From Salinimonas chungwhensis DSM 16280 (lineage in GTDB: Bacteria > Pseudomonadota > Gammaproteobacteria > Enterobacterales > Alteromonadaceae): a stretch of DNA of 64,000 nucleotides. The position numbers and the translations under genes were made by a program. Below, one piece after another: positions 1,098 through 20,291 of this stretch (positions are counted from its first letter, which is position 1; every line of letters starts with the position of its first letter). Under the pieces are notes generated by a model. It saw only the letters and a list, made by a program, of their open reading frames with translations. It did no database searches and was not told the origin of the DNA. The stretch covers positions 1 through 64,000 of the forward strand of contig NZ_KB899378.1 in assembly GCF_000378185.1 (NCBI RefSeq), in the 5' to 3' direction.

Positions 1098-1194
1098 ACT
1101 ACTTCCTTGTTCTTGTTAGCGCTGGTAAAAATCTAGTTTTTCTCTACGCACTTTATTATTTTCGACGAAGATTACAGATTTTTATATAAGGTGT

Positions 1195-1263
1195 CTAGTG
1201 CCCGAAGCTGACAAAATTGATCACGAAAACGTGCTATTTTCTAACGTTACTTTCGGGCACTAG
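1195..1263. repeat. 12-bp perfect inverted repeat just past the integrase stop
   Basis: CTAGTGCCCGAA (1195-1206) is repeated in inverted form as TTCGGGCACTAG (1252-1263), with 45 bp between. A smaller hairpin (CACGAAAACGTG) sits inside. The right arm ends eight bases from the integrase stop codon. It could be a transcription terminator, but the wide spacing and lack of a T-run fit a recombination or protein-binding site better. Confidence 0.6.
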
Positions 1264-12646: not shown

Positions 12647-13741
12647 TCACTCACCTAAACAGGCTTTCAGGTGCTCAGCCCAAAACTCAGGTGAATATTG
12701 AACAGCTTGGTCACCGATACTAATTTCGCAGATACAATGCTTTTCGGTCTCCGCGCGGGGTAACGGTAAAGCCATCACACCTGTGCGCTGCGCACAATCA
12801 AGTAGTTTATTAACCAGAGACTGGCTATCAGAATTGATCTTGATGTGAAACATGGCCGCTTGCGGAGATTCGGGGATAATCTCAAATGATTCTGCCGCTA
12901 ACTTCTGGCCCAGCGTGATTGCATAGCTAATAAACTGCGGCATTTTTTTATTCATAAGGGCTATGCCTCGCCTGGCAGCCAGCGCTTCAGGATAAAGCGT
13001 AACAGGATTCCCACCTGCTCTTCGTGCCCAAATTCGGGCCTCCTCTACCAACGCCTGCTCTCCCAGCAACGCAGCACCAAAAATGCCATTTAAATCTTTG
13101 TAAAAACTCGCATAGACACTGTCAAAAAGCGCTGCAATTTCCTTCAGGCTCCGCTGGTAATACAACGTTGTTTGCCACACTCTGGCCCCATCCATGTGCA
13201 TAGCAACCTGGTTATTGTTACACCACTGACGAATGGCGACTAACGATTGCCAGTCTGGCATAATCCCACCAAGTTCGCGCATAGGGGTTTCGATGACTAT
13301 GGCACAAATCTCTGAAGCATCCAGTGTATCAATGTCCTTTGCGGTAATTACCGCATCTGCCTGTCCAACGGTTTTAACCCGTTACTGCCATAGTGTTTCA
13401 ACAGCTTGATGTTCGTGAAGCAATAAGTGAGATGTAGGATGCAGCGCAATACCAGGCTTTTGAGTACGCTCGCTGTAGCATTTCAAAGCAGCGTTTTGCG
13501 CCAGGGTGCCGGTCGGCAAAAATAATGCGGCCGGTTTATCGAACAGCCAGGCAAGCTCTTGTTCAAACGCGTGAACGCTGCCACCCTGACCGTACGAGTC
13601 CCGGATATCATCTGCCTGTGCGTACTGGCTTAAGAGGAGCAGCTCATCTTTTATGGTTGGCTGAGCGCTTCGATGAATTATCGCTTTGCTTTGGCTCAGT
13701 AGCTGCGCATAACGTTGTTTTTGCCATGATGTGACGGTCAT
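12647..13741 (-). pseudogene. Threonine aldolase-family (PLP) gene broken by one TAA
   Basis: The frame from the ATG at 13741 (AAGGTGA seven bases upstream) runs 119 codons to a TAA at 13382-13384, then stays open in the same frame to 12647. Joined, it is a fold-type I PLP enzyme of the beta-eliminating lyase/threonine aldolase family: GSVHAFEQELAWLFDKPAAL and FLPTGTLAQNAAL in the first part, HLLLHEH, then HMDGARVW and the lysine-bearing ASFYKDLNGIFGAALLG in the second. The intervening stretch after the TAA has no other stop and looks native (for example VIETPMRELGG). The loss appears to be one base change. A shorter product from internal ATG 13282 would lack part of the active site. Confidence 0.85.
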
Positions 13742-14228: not shown

Positions 14229-15818
14229 TTGATTACCACTGCCAACGTCACTATGCAATTTGGCTCTGAGCCATTGTTTGAAAATATCTCCGCAAAATTT
14301 GGAAACGGCAACCGCTACGGCCTTATTGGCGCCAATGGTTGCGGTAAATCCACCCTGATGAAAATTATGAGCGGCGAACTTACGCCGTCAGCCGGCAATG
14401 TGTCGATGACGCCGGGTACTAAACTCGGTATTTTAAGTCAGGACCAATTTGCTTTTGAAGATATGACGGTAGTGGATGCTGTTATTGTGGGCGATCGCGA
14501 ACTGTGGGAAGTCAAACAGGAACGTGATGAAATCTACAGCAAGCCGGATATGAGTGAAGAGGATGGCATGCGCGTCGCCGACCTGGAAACACGCTTCGCC
14601 GAGATGGACGGGTACACAGCTGAAGCCAGAGCGGGTGATATTCTTAGTTCTGCCGGTATCGATGAAAGCTACCATTTCGGGCTTATGAAAGAAGTTGCAC
14701 CGGGTAAAAAAGTAAGAGTACTTCTGGCTCAGGCCTTGTTTGCCGACCCCGATATTCTGTTACTGGACGAGCCTACTAACAACCTGGATATCTATACCAT
14801 TCACTGGCTGGCCGAAGAATTGAGTAAGCGTAAAGCCACAATGATCATCATCTCGCACGATCGACACTTTTTAAACTCTGTGTGTACCCACATGGCAGAC
14901 ATTGATTATGGCGAGCTGCGCATCTACCCGGGCAACTATGACGCATATGCCGAAGCGGCGGCGCTGGCTCAAGAACAGCTTCACCTGGAAAATGCTAAAA
15001 AATCCGCAGAGATAGAAGAGTTGCAGGGTTTTGTGGCACGCTTTTCCGCCAATGCATCAAAGGCAAAGCAGGCCACGTCCCGCGCGAAACGTCTTGAAAA
15101 AATTGAGTTAGCCGATATCAAAGCGTCAAGTCGCCGAAAACCATTTATTCAGTTTAAACAGCACAAAAAGTTGCACCGTCTGGCCATTACTCTGGAGGAC
15201 CTGGGTCATAGTTATTCTGATGAGCCTTTGTTTAATAATGCAAACCTGCTGCTGGAAGCAGGCTCACGTCTTGCGATCATTGGTGAAAATGGTGCCGGTA
15301 AAACCACCTTACTAAAGTGTCTGGTAAATGATCTTGATGCCAGCGAAGGTGTTGTTAAATGGGCGGAGAATGCCTCCTTAGGTTACATCCCCCAGGATAG
15401 CTCAAAAGACTTTGACTGTGACCTCACGTTGTTTGAGTGGATGTCGCAATGGCGTGGTCCCAAGCATGATGACTTACAGGTCAAAGGCATGCTGGGCAGA
15501 TTATTGTTCAACTCTGAAGATTTCAATAAAAAAGTACGCGTTTGCTCCGGGGGAGAAAAAAACCGCCTGCTTTTCGGCAAACTGATGCTGCAGGATATTA
15601 ACGTGCTGGTGATGGACGAGCCCACTAACCACCTCGATATGGAGTCTATTGAGGCGCTAAATAATGCATTGTACAAATTTGACGGCACCGTAATTTTTGT
15701 TAGTCACGACCGCGAGTTTGTATCATCACTGGCCACGCAGGTTATCGAAATAAAAGACAATAAAATTAATAATTTTGAAGGCACTTATGAGGAATTTGTA
15801 GCGCACTCTGCTGCATAA
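14229..15818 (+). CDS. ybiT: ABC-F ATPase, YbiT type
   Basis: This 529-residue soluble twin-ATPase has no membrane segments. E. coli YbiT has 530. The opening [20 protein letters not shown] is nearly that of YbiT. Walker A motifs are GANGCGKST (near residue 36) and GENGAGKTT (near residue 358), and the Walker B regions are [11 protein letters not shown] and [11 protein letters not shown]. The linker between the two domains carries the basic, helical segment of ABC-F proteins that contacts the ribosome. The start codon is TTG, chosen because homologues begin here; the ribosome site is weak. Family members modulate translation. It ends 15 bases before a converging small membrane gene. Confidence 0.92.
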
Positions 15819-15832
15819 GAATACCTTACAGC

Positions 15833-16081
15833 TCATCTTAAAATAAGCAGTGTGATTGCAAAGAGCAAAGTGGGATGAGTGAGTACATACCATCCGGCAT
15901 AATTAATATTATTGCTAATGATTTTTCCATAGGTTTTTGTTGTATGGCGGATGGTTATTGGTATAACTGAGATAATAAAAGCTATGAAAATTGTTAATTC
16001 GTCTGCCAATACACAGAGCGTAATCACCACGACGCTCGCGAAAAGTACAATTTTATATAATGGCCATTCGTAAAATTTCAT
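15833..16081 (-). CDS. Small membrane protein, candidate immunity protein
   Basis: This 82-residue protein has three hydrophobic segments (about residues 10-25, 28-43 and 66-80). It is the last leftward gene of an AT-rich island that begins with two double-glycine-leader peptides at 16873 and 16678 and includes another small membrane protein at 16191-16364. The order precursor-precursor-small membrane proteins is typical of class II bacteriocin immunity genes. No sequence family is recognised. The ribosome site is weak. Function is inferred from context. Confidence 0.5.
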   Translation of the reverse strand: MKFYEWPLYKIVLFASVVVITLCVLADELTIFIAFIISVIPITIRHTTKTYGKIISNNINYAGWYVLTHPTLLFAITLLILR

Positions 16082-16190
16082 TACATTGAGTGCTCATAAA
16101 GTTAATAATAGTAAGCATCGATAATTTAATATTTCCCAAGTTAACTTTATAAAAATTAAGCTACTTTATTAAACCGGAAAAAACTTTAAT

Positions 16191-16364
16191 TCAATACTTT
16201 TTTCTAAAGAAGTAACCTACTACGGTGAGAACCATACCACTTAAAAACCAGGGGTTTGAGGTGATTGCCACACCGGCACTTAATCGCTCAAACACTGCTA
16301 TAATCAGAAATATTACTGCTATTGAAATAACAGAGATATCAAAAATTATAGTTTTAGTAATCAT
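16191..16364 (-). CDS. Very small membrane protein, candidate immunity protein
   Basis: This 57-residue frame opens MITKTIIFDISVISIAV, has a first helix (residues 5-25), a short polar loop with E26-R27, a second helix (39-52) and a basic RKKY tail. The ribosome site GAGGG six bases before the ATG is strong, which supports a real gene. It sits between the bacteriocin-like precursors (ending 16505) and the 82-residue membrane protein gene. A helical hairpin of this size is common among bacteriocin immunity proteins; no family is recognised. Confidence 0.55.
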   Translation of the reverse strand: MITKTIIFDISVISIAVIFLIIAVFERLSAGVAITSNPWFLSGMVLTVVGYFFRKKY

Positions 16365-16390
16365 TGTTGCCCTCGTGATTTATTGCAAGT

Positions 16391-16410
16391 AAGGGGTGCG
16401 CCATCCCCTT
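16391..16410 (-). terminator. Hairpin between precursor genes and membrane-protein genes
   Basis: AAGGGG (16391-16396) and CCCCTT (16405-16410) form a six-bp stem with an eight-base loop, 95 bases after the second precursor. There is no T-run in the leftward direction, so it could attenuate transcription without blocking it. Confidence 0.4.
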
Positions 16411-16504
16411 AAATATATTTTTTATTCACACACATTTTGCGTTACTAAGTAATCACTTAAAAACTGTAGCAACGCTTGTATTTGAATTGGCGAAAATGAA
16501 AGTT

Positions 16505-16678
16505 CTATGGATGTTTATGCAGCGCATCGTATGTCGCGCCTCCTAACCATGTTCCAAAATTGTTAAGTGACCGAATAGCTCCGCCTACCAACCAGCCCAT
16601 TCCATAGCCAGCTGCTTCAGCGCCTTTGCCGCCTCCAGTTACCTGATTTATTTCCTGAAAATCAATCTATTTAATCAT
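16505..16678 (-). pseudogene. Second double-glycine-leader peptide, amber codon at position 4
   Basis: From the ATG at 16678 the frame reads M-I-K, TAG (16667-16669), then IDFQEINQVTGG, which is an excellent double-glycine leader, followed by a Gly-rich core (GKGAEAAGYGMGWLVGG...) and the ending ATYDALHKHP before a stop at 16505. Removing the TAG (GAG to TAG is a single change) gives a 57-residue precursor with a core of about 41 residues. The last ten residues nearly match those of the intact precursor just upstream (GLYDALHKQP), so the two are paralogues. A start at a non-ATG codon after the TAG is possible but I see no good ribosome site for it. Only 12 bases separate it from the upstream precursor's stop. 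Confidence 0.65.
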
Positions 16679-16690
16679 TCTTAGTGTCCA

Positions 16691-16873
16691 TTAAGGTTGT
16701 TTATGTAACGCGTCGTAAAGCCCATTACCTAATCCTTCTCCAAAAGACCAGGCCACATCAAGTACTGATAAATAAGCACCAAATGCTACTGCTCCAGCGT
16801 AATAATGTAGCGGAGTTCCACCTGAAATATATCTTATTTTGTTTTCATTTAAGGTTTCAAATGTGTCTTTCAT
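16691..16873 (-). CDS. Double-glycine-leader bacteriocin/microcin-like precursor
   Basis: This is a 60-residue peptide. Residues 1-19 (MKDTFETLNENKIRYISGG) form a leader with the usual spaced hydrophobic and acidic residues and a Gly-Gly end, the signal cut by C39-peptidase ABC exporters. The 41-residue core begins TPLHYYAGAVAFGAYL, is amphipathic to hydrophobic, includes Trp and a GEGLGNG stretch with GxxxG spacing, and ends YDALHKQP. AAGGA lies six bases before the ATG. A paralogue follows 12 bases downstream, then two small membrane proteins. This is the pattern of a two-peptide (class IIb-like) bacteriocin. No C39 transporter is in the window, so export would need one elsewhere. Activity is inference. 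Confidence 0.7.
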   Translation of the reverse strand: MKDTFETLNENKIRYISGGTPLHYYAGAVAFGAYLSVLDVAWSFGEGLGNGLYDALHKQP

Positions 16874-17271
16874 AAATATCCTTATTTAACTTTTATGAAA
16901 ATTACAAATATTCGTATCGAATATCTACTTTTGTCTAACGGCATGTTGAATAGTAACAAGCCATTTTAAAAATAAATACTGAACAAATTGTCGTTTTATC
17001 AATCTACACATTATTTAAAGCGAACAGCACTTCAGTATATGTAGTGGTTTACTTTAAAATGACTAAAGTAAACTACATAAGTAAGCAGGGCGAAAAGAAA
17101 CCTCGAAAACCAATAAATAGCAAATTGTCACTACTTTTATCATAGCACCCCATCATCTTATAAAGTGTGAGCATTGGTTTCACCTGTACCAGGGTGTAGA
17201 TATTTTTCATAAAAATGGATAAGCGTATGAGATCTTTGAAGTACAATTGTTGGCAAAAATTCGGAGTCTTT
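16874..17271. other. AT-rich intergenic stretch, promoter region of the peptide locus
   Basis: About 400 AT-rich bases separate the leftward peptide operon from the rightward TPR gene. The only marked structure is the inverted repeat at 17047-17073. No further leader peptide is seen. Confidence 0.45.
17047..17073. promoter_or_regulatory. Operator-like inverted repeat upstream of the peptide operon
   Basis: GTTTACTTTA (17047-17056) and TAAAGTAAAC (17064-17073) are a perfect 10-bp inverted repeat seven bases apart, and outer GTAG/CTAC extend it with a small bulge. It lies about 175 bases upstream of the intact precursor. It could bind a dimeric regulator; a terminator is less likely because no gene ends here. 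Confidence 0.45.
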
Positions 17272-17913
17272 ATGCAAATTTTACGAACAACCGCACTAGT
17301 GACTGCGCTTTGCTTCTCTTTACCTGCTCTGGCTCAGGAGAAATCCTCGTTATTAGATATCCAGCATAAGTGGGCGAAAGTAAACTATGGCATTGACAAT
17401 GCAAAGCAGCTTGGTCAGTTTGAATCTTTGATTGAACAAGCTCGGGAACTTGTAGCAGCATCACCCAATAACGCCGCAGCCCTAACCTGGCTCGGTATCG
17501 CACAGGCCAGTGCTGCCAGAGCAAAAGGCGGACTGGGCGCACTTGATTTTGCTGAAAACGCCCGTGAAAATTTTGAAAAAGCCATAGAGATTGAACCGTC
17601 GTCGCTAAACGGCACAGCGCTATTCAGTCTGGCCGCGCTGTATTATAAAGTCCCCGGTTGGCCAGTGAGTTTTGGCGACGTTGATAAAGCCGAGAAACTT
17701 TTTAAAGACGCTCTCGCCATCCACCCGAAAGGTATCGACCCTAACTATTTTTATGCCGAGTATTTATACGAAGAGGGCAATTATGAGTCGGCCTACAGAT
17801 ATTTGCAGCAAGCATTGCAAGCTGATCCTCGTCCGAATAGACCGCTGGCTGATAGCGGCCGACGTGAAGCTGTTAAAACGTTATTGAAAAAAGTTACGTC
17901 AAAACGCAGTTAA
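17272..17913 (+). CDS. Periplasmic tetratricopeptide-repeat protein
   Basis: The start at 17272 (GGAG five bases upstream) places a clean signal peptide (MQILRTTALVTALCFSLPAL, then AQ) at the N-terminus; an earlier in-frame ATG at 17215 would bury it. The mature protein of about 190 residues has TPR-like helical pairs with typical endings such as AIEIEPSSLNG, ALAIHPKGIDP and ALQADPRP. It is likely a periplasmic scaffold or assembly factor. No partner is evident; katG follows 150 bases downstream as a separate unit. Confidence 0.75.
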   Translation: MQILRTTALVTALCFSLPALAQEKSSLLDIQHKWAKVNYGIDNAKQLGQFESLIEQARELVAASPNNAAALTWLGIAQASAARAKGGLGALDFAENARENFEKAIEIEPSSLNGTALFSLAALYYKVPGWPVSFGDVDKAEKLFKDALAIHPKGIDPNYFYAEYLYEEGNYESAYRYLQQALQADPRPNRPLADSGRREAVKTLLKKVTSKRS

Positions 17914-18065
17914 CGGTGAGCCCGGGGGCTGATTATTCAGTACGTTGATTTCTCTTAAAAAATCCGATTAGCATAATCTAATTTACTTATTTCCCAGAAG
18001 CCCACTTTTAGACGATGCTTAGTGGGTAGCTTATGTTAATGACATTGTACTAAGAGGAATAAATT

Positions 18066-20291
18066 ATGTTAAAGCGCGTAATGACAGTGGCAGCGGCAGT
18101 GTCCATCGCACTGTCGCCGGTAACAATGGCTGCCGAACAACAGGCGCAGTCACAAGAAGTGCGCAGCAACGCATTCTGGTGGCCGGAACAGCTGAACCTT
18201 GGCCCATTGCGGGCGCATGGCCCGGAATCAAATCCTTATGGTGAAGATTTTGATTATGCTGAGGCTTTCGAGCAGCTTGACCTACAAGCTGTAAAAAAAG
18301 ATATACGTGCAGTACTGACCGACTCACAGGATTGGTGGCCGGCTGACTATGGTCACTATGGTCCGTTCTTCATTCGTATGGCATGGCATGCTGCGGGAAC
18401 CTACCGTGTGCACGACGGACGTGGCGGTGCTGGTGGTGGCCAACAACGCTTCGACCCGCTAAACAGCTGGCCTGATAATGCTAATCTGGATAAGGCGCGA
18501 CGCCTGCTCTGGCCAATAAAGCAAAAGTACGGCCGCAGTATTTCGTGGGCGGATTTGATGGCGCTTACCGGGAATGTAGCGTTAGAGGACATGGGCTTTA
18601 AAACATTCGGCTATGCCGGTGGGCGTGTTGATGACTGGGAACCCGATTTGGTTTACTGGGGACCGGAAAGCAAGTTTTTAACCGACGAGCGCCGGGATAA
18701 AAAAGGCAAACTTAAAGGACCTTTAGCTGCGGTGGAAATGGGGCTTATTTATGTTAACCCTGAAGGGCCTCACGGCAACCCAGACCCTATCGCGTCAGCA
18801 AAAGATATTCGTATGTCCTTTGGTCGCATGGCAATGGATGATGAAGAAATTGTTGCTTTGATTGCCGGTGGTCACACATTTGGTAAAGCCCACGGCGCTA
18901 AAAAAGCAGATTGTCTGGACAAAGAACCGGCTGCAGCAGGTGTTGAAGAACAAGGTATGGGCTGGAAAAATAAATGTGGTAAAGGTAACGCAGAAGATAC
19001 CATGACCAGCGGCCTTGAAGGTGCATGGACAGTTACGCCCACGAAATGGACGACTAACTATCTGGATAACCTGTTTGCCTTTGAGTGGAAAAAAACGAAG
19101 AGTCCGGCAGGAGCCACTCAATGGATTCCTAAATCAGAATCTGCTGCGAATATGGTTCCGGATGCCCACGACAAGTCAAAGCGCCATGCACCAATAATGT
19201 TCACCACTGACCTGGCGTTAAAAGAAGATCCTGAATTCCGTAAAATCGCATTGCGCTTTAAAGATAACCCGGAAGAATACGAGAAAGCCTTTGCTAAAGC
19301 CTGGTTCAAGCTAAATCACCGAGATCTCGGCCCCCGTGCTCGCTATCTTGGCGATGAAGTGCCTGAGGAAGTATTGAAATGGCAGGATCCGATTCCCGAA
19401 GTCGATTATAAACTGGTAAATGACAAACAGATTTCCCAGTTAAAAGCGCAGATTTTAGAGACCGGATTAACGATCCCAGAGTTAGTGAGAACGGCATGGG
19501 CCTCTGCTGCAAGCTATCGCGATACCGATATGCGTGGCGGCGCAAACGGCGCGCGGATCCGACTGGCTCCGCAAAACAGCTGGCCGGTGAATAACCCGGA
19601 CGAACTGGACAAGGTACTGAATGAACTTCAGCAAGTTCAAAAGAACTTCAACGAAGGCTCATCTGAGGTGCAAATTTCTCTGGCGGACACGATTGTTCTG
19701 GCAGGGGCTGCTGCCATCGAAAAAGCCGCCAGTGATGCCGGTTATGATATCAGTGTTCCGTTTAAGCCAGGTCGTGCTGATGCCAGTGCAGAGATGACCG
19801 ATGTCGACTCTTTTGCCTACTTAGAGCCCAAAGCTGATGCCTTTAGAAACTATTATTCTGAGGACGCCTGGAAATCGCCGGCAGAAATGATGGTTGAACG
19901 TGCTGATCTGTTGTCCTTAACGGTACCAGAGATGACAGTATTGTTAGGAGGCATGCGGAGTCTGGATGCAAACCACGACCAAATGCAGCATGGTGTGCTT
20001 ACTACCACTCCCGGACAGTTGAATAATGCATTTTTTGTGAATCTGTTGGACATGTCTACGCAGTGGGAAAAATCGTCGGATGACGAGACAATTTATGTAG
20101 GCAAAGACCGCAAGACCGGTGAGCAGAAGTGGACCGCCACGCCGGTTGACCTGATCTATGGTTCAAATTCTGAATTGCGTGCTATTGCGGAAGTTTATGC
20201 ATCTGATAACGCAAAACAGAAGTTTGTGGATGACTTTGTCGCTGCCTGGACGAAGGTAATGACCAACGACAGGTTTGACCTTAAGTCTTAA
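18066..20291 (+). CDS. katG: Catalase-peroxidase KatG with signal peptide
   Basis: This 741-residue bifunctional heme catalase-peroxidase has an N-terminal signal peptide ([20 protein letters not shown], cleavage near A22-A23), so the enzyme should work in the periplasm. Distal residues R104, W107 and H108 are in [12 protein letters not shown]. The Met-Tyr-Trp adduct is W107, Y229 ([12 protein letters not shown]) and M255 (GRMAMDDEE), and the proximal heme ligand is H270 ([11 protein letters not shown]). All are present, so it should be active. The second, inactive KatG half follows to the C-terminus. AGAGGAA lies six bases upstream of the ATG and a strong terminator follows. OxyR, encoded 28 kb away, is a plausible regulator. 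Confidence 0.96.

What the first reader, a model, noticed from the sequence alone, without database searches (positions are those of the whole stretch)
15833..16873. Compact two-peptide bacteriocin/microcin-like locus with two candidate immunity proteins
Seen directly: two tandem leftward frames 12 bp apart, each with a double-glycine leader (ending IRYISGG and INQVTGG), Gly-rich cores of about 41 residues, and a shared ending YDALHK(H/Q)P. Two small membrane proteins (57 and 82 residues) follow on the same strand in AT-rich DNA. Known: class IIb bacteriocins use two peptides with GxxxG motifs, plus immunity proteins, and are exported by C39 ABC transporters. Inference: this is an orphan two-peptide bacteriocin-like system of a marine gammaproteobacterium.
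Basis: partly seen in the sequence, partly recalled or inferred. Interest (0 to 1): 0.82.

Follow-up and report, generated by a model that had tools for sequence, protein, structure and literature searches.

The report
Disarmed two-peptide bacteriocin locus, immunity kept
A marine bacterium carries two adjacent tiny genes that resemble the paired antibacterial peptides of lactic acid bacteria; in this strain the second gene is cut by an early stop codon while two neighbouring membrane-protein genes stay open, so it has probably lost the weapon and would likely keep the protection.

Summary
Gene alpha (16691-16873, -) is an intact 60-aa double-glycine precursor. Gene beta starts 12 bp downstream (ATG 16678) but has an in-frame TAG at codon 4 and no usual start between that stop and its Gly-Gly site. 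An intact 57-aa beta is in the protein database. Both peptides belong to a paired family in Alteromonadaceae: 23 strong alpha loci, 19 strong beta loci, 19 of 19 betas beside an alpha. The alpha family matches the lactococcin G-beta model (1 of 10 members scanned alone above cut-off; the window's alpha is not), the beta family weakly matches lactococcin G-alpha and plantaricin K: two-peptide (class IIb) bacteriocins. Every core examined has GxxxG. The genome holds an unlinked HlyD + C39-ABC exporter and a TolC. The 57-aa membrane protein is related to proteins beside other pairs; it and the 82-aa protein recur at the same site in two Salinimonas genomes, where a different double-glycine peptide sits. 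A second pair in this genome has stops in both peptides: 3 of its 4 genes have internal stops, against 0 of 38 elsewhere (1 of those 38 lacks a usual start). Best reading: a two-peptide bacteriocin locus turned immune non-producer. No activity is shown.

The parts
16691..16873 (-). alpha peptide precursor, 60 aa, ATG start, leader MKDTFETLNENKIRYISGG, 41-residue core with GEGLG/GLGNG and tail YDALHKQP
   Evidence: AAGGA before the ATG at about 16879-16883 (read by eye)
16505..16678 (-). beta peptide gene, interrupted; open from 16666 to the stop at 16505, core of 41 residues with GYGMG, GWLVG, GTWLG and tail YDALHKHP
   Evidence: (match with 1 TAG inside); intact 57-aa relative P0070
16667..16669 (-). 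in-frame TAG, codon 4 of beta
16191..16364 (-). 57-aa membrane protein, probable immunity protein
   Evidence: hhalign E 1.5e-5 to proteins beside other pairs; relatives at the same site in L063, L064; dN/dS 0.28 and 0.31
15833..16081 (-). 82-aa membrane protein, possible second immunity protein
   Evidence: relatives at the same site in L063 and L064; dN/dS 0.22 against L064; no match to the other immunity-like profile
14229..15818 (+). left flank of the site: ABC-F family ATPase (ordinary gene)
   Evidence: NF011646, 934 bits, cut-off 762
17215..17913 (+). right flank of the site: TPR-type protein, followed by catalase/peroxidase katG 18066-20291
   Evidence: the TPR gene's matches are all below cut-off

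Best explanation
Window 15833-16873 holds a pair of double-glycine peptide genes that likely encode a two-peptide (class IIb-like) bacteriocin of a Gram-negative bacterium, followed by two small membrane proteins predicted to give immunity; the second peptide gene has an in-frame TAG at codon 4, so this strain probably no longer makes the active pair. In intact relatives the mechanism would be: both precursors are recognised by their leaders, cleaved after Gly-Gly and exported by a C39 ABC transporter with its HlyD adaptor and TolC, encoded elsewhere in the genome (parts shown, use inferred). The two mature peptides, each predicted to form one long helix, would pack through GxxxG faces into one membrane-spanning unit that permeabilises the inner membrane of close relatives (inferred from lactococcin G and plantaricin JK). 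The membrane proteins would block this in the producer. The strain would now be an immune non-producer: the peptide genes are breaking while the immunity genes are kept.
For: Family and pairing: 23 alpha loci (E <= 2e-9) in 20 genomes and 19 beta loci (E <= 1e-7), of 295 family genomes; 19 of 19 betas lie beside one of these alphas, and 20 of 23 alphas have a beta match beside them at E <= 0.01 (lists read by hand, some rows near-identical genomes). Relation to known pairs: 22 of 56 alpha relatives match lactococcin G-beta NF038034 and 25 of 56 TIGR03949 at E <= 0.01; P0017 passes the NF038034 cut-off, 39.6 against 37 bits; 3 of 29 beta relatives match lactococcin G-alpha NF038035, best E 0.0025; the beta profile finds plantaricin K, PDB 2keg, E 0.0037. 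GxxxG in 56 of 56 and 28 of 28 cores. AlphaFold2: one helix 21-57 for P0009, the near-identical alpha (mean pLDDT 84), and 20-54 for P0070 (weak, 62). Immunity; in L047 a pair is followed by a PF02517 protein (E 5.9e-17), and Abi-family immunity proteins are described for plantaricins EF and JK (PMC8538875, passages). Exporter: C39 with C28, H101, D117, Pfam C39 + ABC, HlyD next to it, TolC 385 bits, cut-off 225. Interruption: intact natural beta P0070 and 98% alpha P0009, both with a longest contig of 68,424 bases; internal stops in 3 of 4 genes of this genome, 0 of 38 elsewhere, P 3.5e-4 if genes are exchangeable.
Against: No activity, expression or export is shown. The window's own alpha reaches only 16.8 bits against the 37-bit cut-off of NF038034; Pfam has no match for either peptide and NCBIfam none for beta. 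Cores are mostly acidic (median net charge -2 in both families; window alpha -2, beta +1), whereas Gram-positive class IIb peptides are mostly cationic (recalled). Decay is not confined to this genome: 1 of the 38 other genes, the alpha at G033:C14, has no ATG/GTG/TTG before its processing site and no beta; with it counted as broken, P is 1.4e-3, and the genomes are not independent. Gonococcal Nap peptides show that such leaders can serve autolysis (PMC11798529). Whether the stops are real in living cells rests on one assembly. P0009 and P0070 are linked only by an equal contig length, not by reading that contig. Window alpha is intact; decay of one gene may be recent or neutral. Immunity is by homology, synteny and constraint only; dN/dS from so few sites is rough, and between the two Salinimonas genomes it is 0.66 (57-aa) and 0.46 (82-aa), a weak constraint.
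Confidence: 0.67

Rival explanations
1. The locus is a working two-peptide bacteriocin here: beta is made in spite of the TAG, by readthrough or by a rare ATT start directly behind it.
For: The frame after the TAG is intact to its natural end and keeps all motifs; alpha is intact. One strong alpha elsewhere (G033:C14) also lacks a usual start, so an unusual start cannot be excluded for the family.
Against: An uninterrupted natural beta exists (P0070); 17 of 17 strong betas of other genomes have an open frame with a usual start before the Gly-Gly; the second pair of this genome is also interrupted, at other places and by TAA. ATT as a start is rare (recalled) and I see no ribosome site before it (by eye).
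Confidence: 0.09
2. The peptides are bacteriocins but the stops are assembly or base-calling errors, so the strain is an ordinary producer.
For: Reads cannot be inspected here; another gene in the window, a threonine-aldolase-like frame, also has an internal TAA.
Against: Three separate stops fall in 3 of 4 short genes of one family. A same-frame scan of the window listed 7 pairs of long open stretches split by one stop; I tested only the aldolase as one gene and took the other 6 by eye for separate genes or noise. The assembly is rated 100% complete with 0.02 contamination, which does not speak to single bases.
Confidence: 0.12
3. The peptides are exported signals or self-lysis factors rather than weapons against other strains, like the gonococcal Nap peptides that mediate autolysis.
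For: Nap peptides have C39 sites, an immunity protein with some likeness to LagC, and act on their own cell (PMC11798529, passages); double-glycine leaders are also used for pheromones (recalled).
Against: Strict pairing of two unlike peptides, GxxxG faces, and changing small membrane proteins beside the pairs fit two-peptide bacteriocins better. I recognised no receptor or regulator gene beside the pairs, but looked only about 1.5 kb to each side, by eye, without a family scan.
Confidence: 0.1

Closest known systems
Lactococcin G / enterocin 1071 family (class IIb, Gram-positive)
   Same: Two double-glycine peptides needed together; alpha family resembles G-beta (NF038034, up to 39.6 bits, cut-off 37), beta family resembles G-alpha (NF038035, weak); GxxxG; membrane immunity protein.
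   Different: Gram-negative host with an outer membrane; cores mostly acidic; tail Y[DENK]xx[HNY] in 56 of 56 alphas and 12 of 29 betas; small membrane proteins instead of LagC with four membrane spans (PMC8538875, passages); exporter not next to the peptides; window alpha itself below cut-off.
Plantaricin JK / EF (class IIb)
   Same: Beta profile aligns with the GIGYAIGYAFG helix of plantaricin K (2keg, E 0.0037); in L047 a PF02517 protein follows the pair, the Abi type of PlnI/PlnL (PMC8538875, passages; that PF02517 covers the Abi type is recalled).
   Different: Neither membrane protein of the window matches PF02517; sequence likeness is limited to about 20 residues.
Class II microcins of Gram-negative bacteria (such as MccV)
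   Same: Double-glycine leader, small membrane immunity protein, C39 ABC transporter, HlyD-type adaptor and TolC (PMC10233263, passages).
   Different: Two partner peptides; the term two-peptide does not occur in that review; exporter genes unlinked; alpha leader 19 residues against 15-18 in that review.
Gonococcal nap island (napABC, napI)
   Same: Gram-negative, bacteriocin-like small peptides with C39 sites and a LagC-like immunity protein (PMC11798529, passages).
   Different: Three cationic peptides that mediate autolysis; no sequence relation was tested here.

Membership tests
Two-peptide (class IIb) bacteriocins | Two adjacent precursor genes, each with a double-glycine leader | tested here: met
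   Met by the family (19 of 19 strong betas beside an alpha); in the window the second gene is interrupted by TAG.
Two-peptide (class IIb) bacteriocins | GxxxG or GxxxG-like motif in each peptide | tested here: met
   56 of 56 alpha cores, 28 of 28 beta cores found by the script (of 29 rows), and both window cores.
Two-peptide (class IIb) bacteriocins | Immunity gene beside the peptides, membrane-associated | tested here: inconclusive
   57-aa protein related to proteins beside other pairs, under some constraint; protection untested.
Two-peptide (class IIb) bacteriocins | C39 peptidase ABC exporter with adaptor | tested here: met
   Present in the genome at C16, with HlyD, but not linked to the peptides; transport of these peptides untested.
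Two-peptide (class IIb) bacteriocins | Full activity only when both peptides are combined | not testable with these tools
   Needs purified peptides.
Two-peptide (class IIb) bacteriocins | Cationic mature peptides (typical, recalled; not strictly defining) | tested here: not met
   Net positive in 4 of 56 alpha and 2 of 28 beta cores; median -2 in both. Window beta core is +1, alpha core -2.
Lactococcin G-beta / enterocin 1071B (NF038034) | Score above the curated 37 bits | tested here: not met
   Window alpha 16.8 bits, P0009 21.6; of 10 relatives scanned alone, 1 passes (P0017, 39.6).
Lactobin A/cerein 7B family (TIGR03949) | Score above the curated 21.5 bits | tested here: not met
   No match for the window peptides at E <= 10; of 10 relatives scanned alone, 4 pass (P0001, P0007, P0008, P0018).
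Class II microcins | Double-glycine leader, immunity gene, C39 ABC transporter, HlyD-type adaptor, TolC | tested here: inconclusive
   Candidate parts present in the genome, exporter unlinked; immunity function untested.
Class IIb microcins (siderophore type, other use of the name) | Gly/Ser-rich C-terminal siderophore attachment motif | tested here: not met
   Tails are YDALHKQP and YDALHKHP, without a Gly/Ser-rich end (by eye).

The most novel reading that the evidence does not exclude
A Gram-negative branch of the lactococcin G/plantaricin type of two-peptide bacteriocins exists in Alteromonadaceae: acidic GxxxG helix pairs with a C-terminal Y-[DEN]-x-x-H tail that would serve as a shared docking tag for crossing the outer membrane, exported by one shared unlinked C39 transporter. 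The pairs sit in exchange sites where peptides are swapped and immunity genes stay, and this strain is a natural immune non-producer, caught with 3 of 4 peptide genes of the family broken and the immunity genes still under constraint.
Probability: 0.35. Interest if true: 0.66.

Novelty: new variant of a known kind. Interest (0 to 1): 0.5.

Why it matters
Two-peptide bacteriocins are known mainly from lactic acid bacteria (recalled). A paired family in marine Gram-negative bacteria would raise a concrete question: how two helical peptides that must meet in the inner membrane pass an outer membrane. The tail shared by the alphas examined and many betas is a testable candidate. The site between an ABC-F gene and katG, with three states in three related genomes, and a strain whose peptide genes are broken while putative immunity genes stay, give a natural case for the producer / immune / sensitive cycle of bacteriocin ecology.

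Tried and rejected
Rejected: chance ORFs (relatives in other genera, pairing); phage cargo (viral-contig scan with A5: 42 pattern stretches, 0 confirmed; its answer warns that records near the window's genome may be left out; plasmid and phage record collections were not searched); siderophore microcin (no Gly/Ser-rich tail); the C39 protein at G000:C1:193611 as exporter (228-aa ORF beside a repeat protein; I ran no ABC-domain scan on it, and the name Fap is recalled). 82-aa protein as a member of the immunity-like profile A7: not supported. Promoter scan: 3 found against 5.7 expected, so nothing to claim; two terminator-like sites, both on the + strand, against 1.0 expected. PDB search with the alpha profile gave only two designed repeat proteins at E 4.6 and 9.4. 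First name of the left flank, EttA, was dropped: it is an ABC-F ATPase by NF011646 (EttA models do not pass). '1 TAA' or '1 TAG' flags on L004, L007, L008, L011, L012, L013 and L018 were terminal stops taken into the alignment and are not counted as interruptions. Weak A3 hits (86 of 295 genomes at E <= 0.01) often cover the leader half only and are not counted as this family. The C39 co-occurrence (20 of 20 strong-alpha genomes against 153 of 295 with C39 at E <= 1e-25; hypergeometric P 1e-6; the 153 is 205 minus 52 weaker rows counted by hand) is not corrected for kinship: all 16 own-genus genomes in that draw have strong C39.

Full report
WHAT IS THERE. On the minus strand, alpha (16691-16873) is an ATG-started 60-aa precursor with AAGGA before the start. 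Twelve bases after its stop an ATG (16678) opens beta, but codon 4 is TAG (16667-16669); the rest of beta (16505-16666) is open and carries its Gly-Gly site and core, with no ATG, GTG or TTG before the Gly-Gly. Both cores are 41 residues and end YDALHKQP / YDALHKHP. A 57-aa and an 82-aa hydrophobic protein follow (16191-16364; 15833-16081). The cassette is AT-rich (34.6% GC against 46.6%) and sits between an ABC-F ATPase gene (14229-15818, NF011646) and a TPR-type gene followed by katG (17215-20291).

RELATIVES. A protein search with 14 alphas gave 56 proteins and with 12 betas 29 proteins. Sources name some alphas 'class IIb bacteriocin, lactobin A/cerein 7B family', and the named hosts include Alteromonas, Aliiglaciecola, Planctobacterium and Colwellia. 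One beta, P0070, is intact, 57 aa, identical to the window's beta after the stop; P0009 is a 98% alpha; both have a longest contig of 68,424 bases, so they probably lie together in another strain. In whole genomes of the family (295 drawn) I count by hand 23 alpha loci at E <= 2e-9 in 20 genomes and 19 beta loci at E <= 1e-7. All 19 betas are next to one of these alphas; 3 of 23 alphas (G219, G033:C14, G211) show no beta match at E <= 0.01. Some of these genomes are near-identical (for example G164 and G183), so the rows are not independent. In the wider order the strong alpha match is found in 4 of 394 genomes drawn, all 4 of the window's own family (E <= 1e-7). The order of the two genes varies. 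Alpha and beta profiles are related to each other (hhalign E 1.9e-10, leader included).

LIKENESS TO KNOWN PAIRS. NCBIfam at E <= 0.01: alpha family 25 of 56 TIGR03949, 22 of 56 lactococcin G-beta NF038034; beta family 3 of 29 lactococcin G-alpha NF038035 and 2 of 29 TIGR03949. Of ten alphas scanned alone one passes the NF038034 cut-off and four pass TIGR03949. The window's alpha passes neither and its beta matches nothing. The beta profile finds plantaricin K in the PDB at E 0.0037, over the GxxxG helix; the alpha profile finds nothing credible. GxxxG is present in all 56 alpha and all 28 beta cores examined (one of 29 rows gave no core), 149 and 91 motifs against shuffle means of 62 and 35. 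The tail Y[DENK]xx[HNY] is in 56 of 56 alphas and 12 of 29 betas. Net charge is mostly negative, against the cationic habit of the Gram-positive peptides (recalled). AlphaFold2 gives one long helix for P0009 (21-57; mean pLDDT 84) and, with low confidence (62), for P0070 (20-54).

EXPORT. The genome has two C39 matches: a 718-aa C39-ABC protein at C16 next to a HlyD-type adaptor, with C28, H101 and D117 in C39-like motifs (motif recalled; positions), and a C39 protein of 228 aa in another setting. No NCBIfam transporter model reaches its cut-off for the exporter or adaptor; Pfam's C39 and ABC models do. A TolC passes its cut-off. Neither C39 gene lies near the peptides. In three single-contig relatives whose C39 matches are all placed (G066, G075, G283) the nearest is at least 230 kb from the alpha; in G058, with 2 of 3 placed, the nearest placed one is 86 kb away. 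So a shared, unlinked exporter is what I see in these; its use is inferred.

IMMUNITY AND THE SITE. The 57-aa protein is related to small membrane proteins that follow other pairs (A7 profile: hhalign E 1.5e-5, probability 79); the 82-aa one is not. A search with an alignment holding the 57-aa protein, two site relatives and five of the others gave 19 proteins, the named ones from Aliiglaciecola, Salinimonas and other Alteromonadaceae, and one 95% identical to the window's (P0105). At the same site, between the ABC-F gene and the TPR-katG genes, two relatives, L064 and L063, carry relatives of both membrane genes. By equal contig length with P0099 and P0103 these are Salinimonas iocasae and Salinimonas sp. 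HHU 13199. They have another 57-58-aa membrane protein instead of the pair, and L064 has a different 62-aa double-glycine peptide; L063 has only its leader and a few residues more. dN/dS against the window: 57-aa 0.28 (L064) and 0.31 (L063); 82-aa 0.22 (L064), not computable for L063 because synonymous sites are saturated, and the 82-aa frame in L063 differs at its end. Between L063 and L064 the values are 0.66 (57-aa) and 0.46 (82-aa), so the constraint is not strong everywhere. So peptides change at this site and the two membrane genes stay. In other relatives (L045, L047, L049) a protein of about 290 aa follows the pair; the one tested, from L047, is PF02517 (E 5.9e-17), the Abi type described as immunity for plantaricins EF and JK (PMC8538875, passages).

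DECAY. The genome has a second pair at C1:519936-520270, each gene with a TAA 11-12 codons before its natural end, followed by a 69-aa membrane ORF. Thus 3 of the 4 genes of this family in this genome have an internal stop, against 0 of the other 38 counted above; P 3.5e-4 if genes were exchangeable. One of the 38, the alpha at G033:C14, is open but has no ATG, GTG or TTG before its processing site; counted as broken, P is 1.4e-3. Other double-glycine peptide genes in this genome look open: a pair at C9:108260, a pair at C7:127884, single ones at C7:51644 and C7:120677. So the exporter may still have cargo.

READING. I take the locus as a two-peptide bacteriocin cassette that in this strain has lost its second peptide and kept probable immunity. 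Shown: sequence, pairing, stops, exporter genes, synteny, some constraint. Inferred: processing, pore formation, immunity, ecological role. Literature: PMC8538875, PMC11798529 and PMC10233263 were read in passages found by term; other papers only as listings. In nine searches of the open-licence library I saw no listed paper that by title or abstract start describes this family; long result lists were shown in part, and subscription papers are not held.

Noticed in passing
window 12647-13741, - strand: A threonine-aldolase-like gene (both halves match PRK10534 and PF01212) is split by an in-frame TAA at 13382-13384.
   Followed up: partly
L032 (G000:C9:108260) 1501-2000 and L033 (G000:C7:127884) 1269-2128: Two further pairs of double-glycine peptides in the same genome, each followed by a small or mid-size ORF (53 and 124 aa); the C7 pair is very Gly-rich. 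Different from the window pair.
   Followed up: partly
L030 (G000:C7:51644) and L031 (G000:C7:120677): Single double-glycine leader peptides; the second ends in ALYDGAKSVIP and is followed by a 99-aa ORF with two CxxC motifs.
   Followed up: no
L002 (G000:C1:192111-195515): A C39-peptidase protein of 228 aa beside a Ser/Asn/Asp-repeat protein of 309 aa; looks like a functional-amyloid type cluster (name recalled, not tested).
   Followed up: no
L064 939-1127 (-) and L063 about 1098-1211 (-): Same chromosomal site in two Salinimonas genomes: a different 62-aa double-glycine peptide, open in L064 and cut short in L063.
   Followed up: partly
L005 (G033:C14:715069-715215): A strong alpha relative without a usual start codon before its processing site and without a beta beside it.
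   Followed up: partly
window about 17038-17079: An imperfect inverted repeat (TATGTAGTTTACTTTA / TAAAGTAAACCACTACATA) about 165 bases upstream of alpha, seen by eye; could be a regulator site or terminator.
   Followed up: no
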